NCBI GenBank assembly: GCA_017883165.1
Contig: JADGOC010000016.1
Coordinates: 1 to 42,735, forward strand
Reading direction: 5' to 3'
From: Acidobacteriota bacterium
GTDB lineage: Bacteria > Acidobacteriota > Vicinamibacteria > Vicinamibacterales > CAVVIG01
DNA: 42,735 bases
Made by a program: the position numbers and the translations under genes. The notes below the pieces were generated by a model that did not search any database, had not been told where the DNA came from, and saw only the letters and a program-made list of their open reading frames with translations. Positions 5,463-7,663 of this stretch are shown here, piece after piece (within the stretch, counting starts at the first letter, position 1; each line of letters starts with the position of its first letter).

Positions 5463-7109
5463 TCAGCTTCGATCAGTTTCAGCAACTTTCGTCACGACCG
5501 CCACCAGATCGTCGAACTCTCGGATCCGCAGTAGTTTCGCCGATCCCGCCAGGGCGATGAGCCCGAGGCCGATCGCCGCGGCCAGACGAGTCGCCTGCGC
5601 CACAAAATACTCCCCGGGCAGCACGACGCGCAGGGCCGCCTGGACACCCAACGTGACGGCAGTCATCGCGAGGCCGGCCGCAACGGTTTTCAGCAGCACG
5701 ATCGCGAGCCGCCCGCCGTCGATGCCGTGCAACGCCTTGCGCAGCAGCCACGCGAGCAGCAGTCCGTTGGCGAGCGCCGCGACGGAGGTGCCGAGCGCAA
5801 GCCCGCGGAATCCCATCACCCGCACGAGCGCCACGCTCAAGATGACGTTCACCGCGATGGTGCAGACGCTGACGACAACCGGCACGCGGCTGCGACGGAG
5901 CGCGTAAAACGTGGGCGATGCGATCCGGACGGTCGAGTAGCCGACGAGACCGAGCGCATAGAAGCGCAGCGCCGCCGCTGTCTGCATCGTGTCGGACGGC
6001 AGGAAGTGTCCGCGCTCGAACAGCAATCGGACGATCGGCGCGGCCAGCGCCAGCAAGCCGAACGTCGCCGGGATGTTGAACATCAACATCATCGCGATGC
6101 CGCGCGACACCGTCGCTCTGACGCCGTCCACGTCGTCGATCGCCGCGTGCCGCGAGACCGCGGGAAGCACCGCCGTGCCAATCGACACGCCGAAGAGGCC
6201 GATCGGAAGATACATCAGACGAAAGGCATAGGTCAGCCATGAGACGGCACCGGTGCCCTGGCTGGTCGCCAGCAGCGTGTTCACGAAGATGTTGACCTGC
6301 GTCGCGGCGAGGCCGATGGTACCCGGCCCCATCAGCAGCAGCACCTGGCGCAGCCCCGGGTCGCGCCAGTTGAGATACGGCTCGTACGCAAAGCCTTCGC
6401 GCCTGAGCGGCCGCCATTGCACGGCGACCTGGCCGACGCCGCCGACGAGCGCCGCGATGGCAATCGCCATGATGCGGGGAAGGCCGATCGCCGGCATCAG
6501 CGGAACGAGCGCAAACGCGCACACGATCGTGGCGACGTTGAACATCGCCGGCGCGAGCGCGGGGACGAAATAGTGGTGCAGCGAGTTCAGCATCCCCATC
6601 ATTGCCGCCGCGATCGCGACCATCGTGAGAAACGGCAGCATGACGCGCGTCAGACGAATAGTGAGCTCGAGCTTGCCGGGCACGGCCGCGAAGCCGCCGG
6701 CATACGCGGTCACAATCGGCCGCGCGAACACGATGCCGACGAGCACGGCGACGCCGGTGAGGAGTAGCAGCGCGTTCACGACATTGTTGCCGAGGCGCCA
6801 CGCGTCGCGCTTGCCGTGTCGCGTCAGATGACGCGTGAAGGTCGGTACGAAGGCGGCGCTCATCGCGCCTTCCGCAAACAGATCGCGCACGAGGTTGGGA
6901 ATGCGGAACGCCACGATGAACGCGTCCATGTCGTTGCCGGCGCCGAAGAGCGCCGCGAGCACCTGATCGCGCGCGAGCCCGAGGATGCGGCTGGTCAGCG
7001 TCGCCGCGCCCGTGAGGCCCGCGGACCGCGCCAGGCGCACCCCGGCCGATTCCGTGACTTCCGGCCGGTGTTCGGATGCGGACACTGTCGATGATGTCTG
7101 GGAAGTCAC
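5463..7109 (-). CDS. murJ: Lipid II flippase MurJ (MviN family)
   Basis: The 548-residue polytopic protein has about 14 membrane helices and the MurJ core: S-R-I-L-G-L-A-R-D near the start, F-R-I-P-N-L-V-R-D-L-F-A-E-G-A-M-S-A-A-F-V-P, and G-A-V-S-W-L-T-Y-A-F-R-L-M-Y-L-P-I-G-L-F-G-V. It moves lipid II to the periplasmic side, the step after MurG and MraY of the neighbouring dcw cluster. The longest frame starts at GTG 7109, directly against the T-run of a terminator with no room for a Shine-Dalgarno. The conserved family N-terminus begins near Val24, whose GTG codon is at 7040, so 7040 (525 residues) may be the real start. A promoter between 7109 and 7040, or read-through, would be needed. Confidence 0.95.
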   Translation of the reverse strand: MTSQTSSTVSASEHRPEVTESAGVRLARSAGLTGAATLTSRILGLARDQVLAALFGAGNDMDAFIVAFRIPNLVRDLFAEGAMSAAFVPTFTRHLTRHGKRDAWRLGNNVVNALLLLTGVAVLVGIVFARPIVTAYAGGFAAVPGKLELTIRLTRVMLPFLTMVAIAAAMMGMLNSLHHYFVPALAPAMFNVATIVCAFALVPLMPAIGLPRIMAIAIAALVGGVGQVAVQWRPLRREGFAYEPYLNWRDPGLRQVLLLMGPGTIGLAATQVNIFVNTLLATSQGTGAVSWLTYAFRLMYLPIGLFGVSIGTAVLPAVSRHAAIDDVDGVRATVSRGIAMMLMFNIPATFGLLALAAPIVRLLFERGHFLPSDTMQTAAALRFYALGLVGYSTVRIASPTFYALRRSRVPVVVSVCTIAVNVILSVALVRVMGFRGLALGTSVAALANGLLLAWLLRKALHGIDGGRLAIVLLKTVAAGLAMTAVTLGVQAALRVVLPGEYFVAQATRLAAAIGLGLIALAGSAKLLRIREFDDLVAVVTKVAETDRS

Positions 7110-7136
7110 AAAAAAGGCCCTCGTTGCCGAGGGCCT
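7110..7136 (-). terminator. Rho-independent terminator after yqeY-like gene
   Basis: On the minus strand a perfect 9-bp GC-rich stem (7136-7128 with 7123-7115) with loop GCAA is followed by six T residues (7115-7110). It lies about 75 nt past the YqeY-family stop and ends exactly where the longest murJ frame would begin. This is the clearest intrinsic terminator in the window. Confidence 0.85.
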
Positions 7137-7147
7137 AAGGGAGGATG

Positions 7148-7193
7148 GATGAGAAGGCGTGTCTTTTGTGCCGTCTCATCAAGGTTAGACGGC
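7148..7193 (-). other. Two mutually exclusive hairpins upstream of terminator
   Basis: Positions 7170-7176 can pair with 7187-7193 (7 bp, 10-nt loop), or, as part of 7170-7180, with 7148-7158 (10 of 11 bp, 11-nt loop). Both cannot form at once. They lie between the YqeY-family stop and the terminator at 7110-7136. Neither overlaps the terminator stem, so this is not a textbook attenuator. It may be a 3' UTR structure. Confidence 0.4.
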
Positions 7194-7210
7194 CGGAGCG
7201 CGAAAAAAGT

Positions 7211-7663
7211 TTAGCCACCGGCGAGCCGCTGGCGCACGAGCTCGTTGACCGTCTTGCCATCCACATTCTGACCGGCCAGCCTGGCCATCACGGCCTTCAT
7301 GACGCGTCCCGTGTCCTTCGGCGACGTGGCGCCGGTTTCGGCGATGGCCTCGTCGACGGCGCGCCCCACGGCCGCGGGATCGGCCGCCGGGGGCAGGTAG
7401 GCGTCGAGCACGCGAATCTCGGCGGCTTCCTTGTCAGCGAGGTCCTGGCGGCCGCCGCTGGTGAACTGCTCGATCGAGTCCTTGCGCTGCTTGACCAGCG
7501 AGGCCACCACCTGCCGAGCTTCGTTGTCGTCGAGGTCGTGCCCTTTTTCGATGCTGCGGTTCATGAACGCCGCCTTGAGCATGCGCAAGGCGCTCAGCCG
7601 CGCCGGGTCCTTCTTGCGCATCGCATCGGCGATCGCCGCGCTCACGTCAGCGGTCAAAGACAT
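7211..7663 (-). CDS. GatB/YqeY domain protein
   Basis: The 150-residue protein matches the YqeY family along its length: A-M-R-K-K-D-P-A-R-L-S-A-L-R-M-L-K-A-A, then R-K-D-S-I-E-Q-F, E-I-R-V-L-D-A-Y-L-P, and D-T-G-R-V-M-K-A-V-M-A-R-L-A-G-Q-N-V-D-G-K near the end. The domain is homologous to the tRNA-contacting C-terminal part of GatB amidotransferase, but stand-alone YqeY lacks the catalytic domains and its role is not settled. The ATG at 7663 is the family start; longer upstream extension is not conserved. No good Shine-Dalgarno precedes it, because an 8-bp tandem array (7665-7696) abuts the start codon. Confidence 0.9.
   Translation of the reverse strand: MSLTADVSAAIADAMRKKDPARLSALRMLKAAFMNRSIEKGHDLDDNEARQVVASLVKQRKDSIEQFTSGGRQDLADKEAAEIRVLDAYLPPAADPAAVGRAVDEAIAETGATSPKDTGRVMKAVMARLAGQNVDGKTVNELVRQRLAGG

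What the first reader, a model, noticed from the sequence alone, without database searches (positions are those of the whole stretch)
7110..7193. Terminator ends exactly at the longest murJ start, preceded by exclusive hairpins
The T-run of a strong intrinsic terminator touches GTG 7109. Translation of murJ from 7109 would need read-through and has no ribosome site. Two mutually exclusive hairpins upstream raise the possibility of conditional read-through into the lipid II flippase gene. The simpler reading is that murJ starts at 7040 from its own promoter.
Basis: partly seen in the sequence, partly recalled or inferred. Interest (0 to 1): 0.5.

Follow-up and report, generated by a model that had tools for sequence, protein, structure and literature searches.

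The report
Stress-promoter small RNA beside murJ
The odd terminator in front of a cell-wall gene is most likely the end of a separate, widely conserved small RNA gene that looks switched on by a stress sigma factor and able to cover ribosome-binding sites of other genes, so it is a newly recognised regulator of a familiar type.

Summary
The terminator is real and its T-run abuts GTG 7109, but it is not best read as part of a murJ switch. On the minus strand, the 100 bases after yqeY look like a complete small RNA gene: an ECF (sigma-E-like) promoter AAACTTT-N14-CGTCTAA (7212-7185), a predicted start near 7180, a 5' hairpin, a conserved AUCCAUCCUCC able to cover Shine-Dalgarno sites, and an intrinsic terminator (7136-7110), giving about 71 nt (z = -6.6). 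A covariance model finds it in 81 family/order genomes of 396 relatives searched (11 family labels; Acidobacteriota, Vicinamibacterales), one copy in nearly all. Terminator pairs covary at 9 of 9 positions. It persists where murJ is not downstream, and one draft genome carries it inverted between yqeY and murJ. Relatives suggest murJ starts near GTG 7085, not 7040. Best explanation: an ECF-sigma-driven, perhaps Hfq-assisted, trans-acting anti-Shine-Dalgarno sRNA, like RybB/MicA and FoxI/FoxJ in kind, matching no Rfam family at threshold. No transcript evidence; sigma factor unidentified; target test inconclusive.

The parts
7206..7212 (-). -35 element AAACTTT of an ECF (sigma-E-like) promoter; overlaps the yqeY stop codon (7211-7213)
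   Evidence: coordinates; mean column identity 0.86 over 74 matches; AAC to CGTC/AGTC spacing 17 nt in 57 and 16 nt in 16 of 74
7185..7191 (-). -10 element CGTCTAA of the ECF-type promoter
   Evidence: mean column identity 0.91 against 0.53 for the spacer and 0.40 for the following 7 bases
7110..7180 (-). predicted small RNA, about 71 nt; 5' end inferred from distance to the -10 box, not mapped
   Evidence: RNA fold -32.9 kcal/mol, z = -6.59, 0 of 200 shuffles as stable; covariance model matches
7148..7180 (-). 5' stem-loop GATGAGA.GGC / GCC.TCTCATC
   Evidence: conserved mostly by sequence, no covariation on the unfitted alignment, some on the fitted one; absent in L056 and L063
7140..7150 (-). 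conserved segment ATCCATCCTCC complementary to Shine-Dalgarno sequences; unpaired in the predicted fold except 7150-7148, which close the 5' stem
   Evidence: mean column identity 0.94; TCCATCCTCC invariant in the 13-sequence alignment apart from one inserted C in L030
7110..7136 (-). intrinsic terminator: stem 7136-7115 and T-run to 7110
   Evidence: 9 of 9 pairs with changes on both sides, 97.9% of cells paired
7211..7663 (-). yqeY (150 aa plus stop), upstream neighbour
   Evidence: Pfam YqeY 3.2e-44
5463..7109 (-). murJ open frame; start more likely near GTG 7085 than 7040 or 7109
   Evidence: Pfam MurJ 2.1e-114; aligned N-terminal extensions

Best explanation
The element is a free-standing small RNA gene on the minus strand between yqeY and murJ. 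An ECF-family sigma factor (promoter AAACTTT-N14-CGTCTAA) starts an RNA of about 71 nt near 7180. It ends at the terminator whose T-run touches the murJ frame. The RNA has a 5' stem-loop, an exposed UCCAUCCUCC segment and a terminator with a U tail. It probably acts in trans, perhaps with Hfq: under envelope or related stress the CCUCC segment pairs with the Shine-Dalgarno region of several mRNAs and blocks ribosome binding. Shown by sequence: promoter-like elements, RNA architecture, conservation, occurrence without a co-oriented murJ, presence of an hfq gene. Inferred: transcription and its start, the sigma factor, Hfq use, repression, targets.
For: The element appeared downstream of yqeY in 12 of the 29 yqeY relatives fetched, before any model was made. 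Model R1 found 73 of 396 relatives. Model R2, built from those matches, found 87 of 396: 81 same family or order and 6 weak in other classes. Conservation is in islands: -35 0.86, -10 0.91, anti-SD 0.94, spacer 0.53, bases after the -10 0.40. Promoter spacing is 16-17 in 73 of 74. The terminator covaries in 9 of 9 pairs; the score for all pairs is 0.499 against 0.153 in shuffles and at most 0.147 when slid. RNA z = -6.59. The gene is inverted between yqeY and murJ in L090, and 12 of 74 matches have no same-strand murJ within 700 nt. No strong rival partner for the terminator arm. The promoter pattern occurs 45 times in 100 relatives against 5 for the reversed pattern; by my classification 23 are this RNA and 22 others, several before MacB/FtsX permease, PadR, HlyD and Hsp20 genes. 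Hfq gene present. No Rfam family reaches threshold at the locus.
Against: No transcript evidence. 62 of 74 matches have murJ downstream on the same strand, which also fits a murJ leader. The cognate sigma factor was not found: 3 of 17 non-rpoD Sigma70_r2 genes have an AAC-N15-18-CGTCTA site upstream, none with the AACTTT block. In the own genome the looser pattern AACTT-N14-17-CGTCTAA gives 3 hits and 3 control hits. Targets: CarboxypepD_reg/TonB-type genes pair better than 21 window genes (p = 5e-4), but the starts were picked by their SD and by eye, and shuffled seeds do nearly as well (22 of 300 at least as good). Two relatives lack the 5' stem-loop (L056, L063). That stem shows no covariation in the unfitted alignment, and its longest helix averages 5.0 pairs against 4.2 in shuffles, 6 or more in 19 of 64. 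The model searches and the fitted alignment select for the conserved elements. The inversion rests on one draft assembly.
Confidence: 0.8

Rival explanations
1. Attenuator: the ECF promoter makes a leader for murJ and the terminator controls read-through into murJ under envelope stress.
For: murJ lies within 700 nt downstream on the same strand in 62 of 74 matches; the T-run abuts the murJ frame here. Hairpin 1 is paired in 61.4% of cells, a value reached by only 13 of 500 shuffles.
Against: Hairpin 1 reaches 6 or more pairs in 8 of 64, contains the -10 box, and one slid version pairs better (69.3%). The leader has no strong partner for the terminator arm. The element is inverted in L090 and without same-strand murJ in 11 further matches. 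yqeY-murJ adjacency also exists without the element (e.g. L004, L008, L010, L012), so synteny is explained by the gene order. The anti-SD segment (0.94 identity) is unexplained by this model.
Confidence: 0.08
2. Ordinary yqeY terminator with nothing else: the upstream conservation is incidental.
For: A terminator after yqeY is expected; the consensus scan is not above chance.
Against: Promoter and anti-SD islands are conserved more strongly in sequence than the terminator (0.63) or the spacer, and the whole unit keeps its order across 11 family labels.
Confidence: 0.08
3. A short protein-coding gene on either strand (MRRHKRHAFSSILP on minus; the SD-like AGGAGGATGGATG on plus).
For: Both reading frames exist in the window; the plus strand shows GGGAGGATGGATG, AGGAGGATGGATG in relatives.
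Against: On minus, an ATG in the first 18 or so bases after the -10 region occurs in 8 of 74. On plus, the frames opened there have unrelated lengths, e.g. 12, 21, 82, 99, 280, 397 codons, and promoter and terminator point the other way.
Confidence: 0.02

Closest known systems
Sigma-E-dependent sRNAs RybB and MicA (enterobacteria; PMC1804206, passages read)
   Same: Promoter resembles -35 GGAACTTTT and -10 GTCAAA; short RNA (MicA about 70 nt, RybB about 80 nt); rho-independent terminator shown for rybB; conserved position between the same neighbours.
   Different: No Rfam family matched at threshold; different neighbours and phylum; -10 is CGTCTAA; targets untested; the C-rich anti-SD segment lies next to the terminator rather than at the 5' end (RybB seed position recalled).
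FoxI and FoxJ of Fusobacterium nucleatum (PMC11005410, passages read)
   Same: Sigma-E-driven sRNAs with C-stretch seeds repressing outer membrane protein mRNA, outside Proteobacteria; FoxJ was first misannotated as a 5' UTR, much as this element could be mistaken for a murJ leader.
   Different: FoxJ is about 156 nt; sequence relation not tested; targets here unknown.
Anti-Shine-Dalgarno sRNAs of Alphaproteobacteria: AbcR/alpha-r15, alpha-r14/NfeR1, MmgR, CcsR/cuckoo (PMC7143759 and PMC10253847, passages read)
   Same: AbcR, alpha-r14 and MmgR carry CU-rich anti-SD motifs thought to pair with ribosome-binding sites; the CcsR operon lies behind an RpoHI/RpoHII promoter.
   Different: alpha-r14 has three anti-SD loops, here one linear segment; suhB/MmgR scores 16.9 bits against a gathering score of 41; neighbours here are yqeY and murJ, not a DUF1127 gene as for CcsR.

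Membership tests
Sigma-E/ECF-dependent trans-acting sRNA (functional class) | ECF-type -35/-10 promoter immediately upstream | tested here: met
   AAC-N16/17-CGTC or AGTC in 73 of 74 matches; island conservation. Sequence only.
Sigma-E/ECF-dependent trans-acting sRNA (functional class) | Ends at an intrinsic terminator with U-tract a short way downstream | tested here: met
   (structure and covariation; the transcript itself was not tested)
Sigma-E/ECF-dependent trans-acting sRNA (functional class) | Transcription depends on a sigma-E-like factor | not testable with these tools
   cognate sigma not identified
Sigma-E/ECF-dependent trans-acting sRNA (functional class) | Represses outer membrane protein mRNAs | tested here: inconclusive
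   better predicted pairing than background, but not clearly beyond shuffled seeds (22 of 300)
Sigma-E/ECF-dependent trans-acting sRNA (functional class) | Hfq available | tested here: met
   one Hfq match, 6.2e-21, in the own genome; binding not tested
Rfam sRNA families incl. suhB/MmgR (RF00519) | Reaches the curated gathering score | tested here: not met
   only a tRNA reaches it in the window; suhB 16.9 of 41 bits
murJ leader attenuator | Conserved mutually exclusive terminator/antiterminator pairing | tested here: not met
   hairpin 1 poorly conserved; no strong leader partner for the terminator arm
murJ leader attenuator | Always upstream of and co-oriented with murJ | tested here: not met
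   L090 inverted; 12 of 74 (L090 included) without same-strand murJ within 700 nt

The most novel reading that the evidence does not exclude
The RNA copies the anti-Shine-Dalgarno tail of 16S rRNA and is the noncoding arm of an ECF envelope-stress response in Acidobacteriota. It lowers translation of exported and outer-membrane proteins as a class. Related C-rich RNAs with ECF-like promoters (weak matches L278, L279, L280 in other classes; extra copies in L288, L289, L291) would make it one member of a phylum-wide set, supporting an early origin of ECF-driven riboregulation.
Probability: 0.3. Interest if true: 0.75.

Novelty: new member of a known kind. Interest (0 to 1): 0.55.

Why it matters
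Regulatory RNA in Acidobacteriota is little studied: a review table counts 4 distinct annotated sRNAs for the phylum (PMC9029176, passage read). A deeply conserved candidate RNA with a readable stress promoter and an anti-SD segment offers a direct test of whether ECF-driven repression by small RNAs, known from Proteobacteria and Fusobacteriota, exists in another distant phylum. It also warns that a terminator in front of a cell-wall gene may end a separate RNA gene rather than regulate that gene.

Tried and rejected
Rfam: no family at gathering score except a tRNA elsewhere in the window; the permissive search gave only sub-threshold matches.

Rejected as a conserved element. The same count for the inner three pairs of the 5' stem shows 82.3% of cells paired but no covariation, and a helix of 6 or more in 19 of 64, so that stem rests on sequence conservation and on the fitted alignment.

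Antiterminator: longest helix between leader and terminator 5' arm 4.8 on average against 4.4 shuffled; 6 or more in 9 of 74. Rejected.

Own-genome promoter pattern: 3 hits against 3 control hits, uninformative; the stricter pattern over 100 relatives was informative. The control there is the pattern read backwards, an imperfect control.

Cognate sigma factor: 18 Sigma70_r2 matches in the own genome, rpoD among them; of the other 17, AAC-N15-18-CGTCTA sites lie upstream of L119, L124 and L127. Not resolved.

Targets: AGGAGGATGG-N0-6-ATG in 16 genomes gave 33 sites against 2 for the reversed pattern; 9 are the reverse strand of the RNA gene itself. Of the 33, 30 were looked at. By eye, gene starts include TonB/CarboxypepD-type genes (L182, L207), an amidohydrolase-like gene (L201) and others (L180, L198, L202); many sites are not at gene starts. 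The energy test on own-genome genes (16 of 30 loci used, 14 dropped by eye for lack of a clear signal-peptide start; 21 background genes) did not beat shuffled seeds at 5%. Inconclusive.

Matches dropped: of the 74 aligned matches, 10 were left out of the 64-sequence alignment: L056 and L063 (no 5' stem), L095 (no CCTCC), L101 (no promoter), L102-L104 (diverged), L065 and L092 (boundary misplaced by my script), and one duplicate, which I take to be L089 (identical to L082). Leaving out diverged ones favours a tidy alignment.

Exact 18-mer scan of named genomes: 26 records, 24 titled as Acidobacteria/Acidobacteriota/Terriglobia/Vicinamibacterales/Luteitalea and 2 others (Acidimicrobiaceae, Alcanivorax). 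R1 does not match those two; R2 gives 9.0 and 17.7 bits, so they look like chance.

Papers: searches showed no description of this RNA in the titles and abstract starts listed; three listings were capped (20 of 62, 12 of 111, 10 of 23), and only open-licence papers are held. The cuckoo RNA family paper is not held.

Full report
What was checked. The minus strand after yqeY (stop 7213-7211) reads AAACTTTTTTCGCGCTCCGGCCGTCTAACC..., then the stretch with the two drawn hairpins, then AGGCCCTCGGCAACGAGGGCCTTTTTT directly before GTG 7109. The scan finds the terminator on the minus strand (stem 7136-7115, 9 pairs, 7 of them G-C), although the number of terminator-like sites in the region is not above shuffles, and it finds no sigma-70-like promoter. 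The 106-nt region folds at -37.0 kcal/mol, z = -4.63, with the second hairpin and the terminator but not the first hairpin. yqeY and murJ are confirmed by Pfam.

Relatives. A yqeY search in 198 genomes gave matches in 147; 29 loci other than the window's were fetched. After yqeY, 12 of these 29 carry the same unit: an AAACTTT-like box, a CGTC core, in most a short stem-loop, CCATCCTCC, and a terminator with T-run. Three of the 12 (L002, L005, L018) have no murJ match in the locus. Two (L014 and L018) have lost the 5' stem-loop but keep the -35 box, a CGTC core, the anti-SD segment and the terminator.

Model searches. A covariance model built from six of these (R1) found 74 matches in 73 of 396 relatives. 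A second model from those 74 (R2) found 87 of 396: 81 in genomes labelled same family or order, under 11 family labels, and 6 in other classes with E of 5e-6 or worse. An even draw over the phylum gave 36 of 396, 10 of them outside the order, with E between 4.3e-8 and 5.3e-4. The unit is single copy in nearly all genomes with a match; G036, G046 and G056 have two or three. Of 26 named records with the 18-base core, 24 are Acidobacteriota by title and 2 look like chance; some titles say Vicinamibacterales or Luteitalea.

Promoter. In 73 of 74 matches AAC and CGTC (AGTC in two) are 16 or 17 bases apart, and the -10 is mostly CGTCTAA, CGTCTAT or CGTCATA. Column identity is 0.86 for the -35, 0.91 for the -10, 0.53 for the spacer, 0.40 for the bases after the -10 and 0.94 for the anti-SD segment (a model-fitted alignment). 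This resembles the sigma-E promoter of enterobacteria, -35 GGAACTTTT and -10 GTCAAA as given in PMC1804206 (passage), and the RpoE -35 GGAACTT in PMC8103513 (passage). The pattern AACTTT-N13/14-CGTCTAA occurs 45 times in 100 relatives against 5 for the reversed pattern. By my classification 23 of the 45 are this RNA. The other 22 were read. Ten of their proteins went to Pfam: MacB/FtsX permeases (L142, L166, L178, the last in the own genome), PadR regulators (L137, L167, L168), an HlyD-type protein (L172) and Hsp20 (L176) reached their cut-offs; L170 (DUF4097) stayed below it and L163 had no match. This supports an ECF regulon with envelope functions. The sigma factor itself was not identified: of 17 non-rpoD Sigma70_r2 genes, three have an AAC-N15-18-CGTCTA site upstream, without the AACTTT block.

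RNA. If transcription starts just after the -10 region, at 7180, the RNA is 7180-7110, 71 nt. It folds at -32.9 kcal/mol, z = -6.59, 0 of 200 shuffles as stable, into a 5' stem-loop, a linear segment with CAUCCUCCCUUA, and the terminator. By eye, the same layout is predicted for most of the 74 matches. On the fitted alignment, all 9 terminator pairs change on both sides with 97.9% of cells paired; the covariation score over all pairs is 0.499, against 0.153 in shuffles and 0.147 at best when slid. The 5' stem is kept mostly by sequence; on an unfitted alignment its inner pairs are 82.3% paired without covariation, and its longest helix averages 5.0 pairs against 4.2 in shuffles.

The two exclusive hairpins. 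The first hairpin pairs the -10 box (GCCGTCT) with AGACGGC. In 64 relatives it is 61.4% paired, a little above its shuffles (59.8%; 13 of 500 reach it) and below one slid version (69.3%), and a helix of 6 or more exists in 8 of 64. In a transcript that begins after the -10 box, its 5' arm is not present. It would exist only in RNA from upstream, such as a yqeY read-through transcript. The leader also offers no strong rival partner for the terminator's 5' arm (4.8 pairs on average against 4.4 shuffled and 8.7 for the terminator itself; 6 or more in 9 of 74). I reject a conserved switch of this form.

Relation to murJ. yqeY lies within 150 nt upstream on the same strand in 65 of 74 matches; murJ follows within 700 nt on the same strand in 62 of 74. 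This synteny is expected, because yqeY and murJ are close neighbours also without the RNA (L004, L008, L010, L012, L016, L020, L026-L028). Twelve of 74 have no same-strand murJ within 700 nt. One of them, L090, carries the RNA gene inverted, with promoter, anti-SD segment and terminator intact, between a forward yqeY and a forward murJ. That inversion rests on one draft assembly. In 16 relatives a sequence of the form TG[TGC][GC]NTA[CT]G[CG]T, like an extended -10 of murJ's own promoter, lies between the terminator and murJ (chance level not estimated); none was found in the window. Residues encoded upstream of 7040 are matched in close relatives (SxS(E/D)(H/Q) in L032, L033, L035, L036), and a GTG or TTG aligns with GTG 7085 in three of them. 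I take 7085 as the likeliest start, with no clear ribosome site.

How it works, most likely. The segment AUCCAUCCUCC is complementary to GGAGGAUGGAU, that is to Shine-Dalgarno sequences and bases after them. The natural reading is a trans-acting repressor that covers ribosome-binding sites, made when an ECF sigma is active, with Hfq (gene present) as a possible helper. Targets are open. Own-genome CarboxypepD_reg/TonB-type genes (63 domain matches; 16 starts used) pair better than 21 window genes (median -12.1 against -8.6 kcal/mol, p = 5e-4), but the starts were chosen by their SD and by eye, and 22 of 300 shuffled seeds separate the groups at least as well. I count this as inconclusive.

Known relatives in kind. 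FoxI and FoxJ of Fusobacterium are sigma-E-driven sRNAs with C-stretch seeds, and FoxJ had been taken for a 5' UTR (PMC11005410, passages). AbcR, alpha-r14 and MmgR carry anti-SD motifs (PMC7143759, passages). CcsR RNAs lie behind a stress-sigma promoter (PMC10253847, passages). The present RNA matches none of the Rfam models at threshold. Literature searches listed no account of it; three of the listings were capped. I therefore call it a new member of a known kind: a new candidate sRNA family that would work like sigma-E-dependent and anti-SD sRNAs, with promoter and architecture tested by sequence and the function not tested.

Noticed in passing
L138, L165, L147/L179, L169, L158, just downstream of the AACTTT-N-CGTCTAA site: A conserved protein of about 28-30 aa with one hydrophobic stretch (for example MYFDFDVSSNAEALVALLLVCALVAVAFI; only its first residues were read in L158) follows the same promoter type in several relatives; possibly an unannotated stress-induced membrane miniprotein.
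   Followed up: partly
L278:820-930 -, L279:726-833 -, L280:875-978 +: Weak R2 matches in other classes of the phylum with C-rich segments and terminators, and CCGTAGA-like boxes in L278 and L280; possible distant or analogous sRNAs, with no yqeY match in the stretches fetched.
   Followed up: partly
L288:714-806 -, L289:746-848 +, L290:653-729 -, L291:773-859 +, L104:974-1066 -: Extra copies of the RNA gene in genomes G036, G046 and G056 (family label f11), with no yqeY match in the stretches fetched and, where shown, altered anti-SD segments such as GCTCCTCC or CCCTCCTCC.
   Followed up: partly
L142, L149, L166, L178, L137, L160: Start codons 6-8 bases after the promoter stretch ending in CGTCTAA, as expected for leaderless mRNAs from this promoter type.
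   Followed up: no
between terminator and murJ in 16 relatives, e.g. L036, L054, L056, L070; also L090: A recurrent TGnnnTACGCT-like sequence (TGCTACGCT in L090) before murJ looks like an extended -10 promoter of murJ itself; chance level not estimated.
   Followed up: partly
L119 and L127 (own genome contig C258, 54268-54952): Two divergent ECF-type sigma genes whose shared upstream region has an AAC-N-CGTCTA site facing each; candidates for autoregulated sigma factors.
   Followed up: partly
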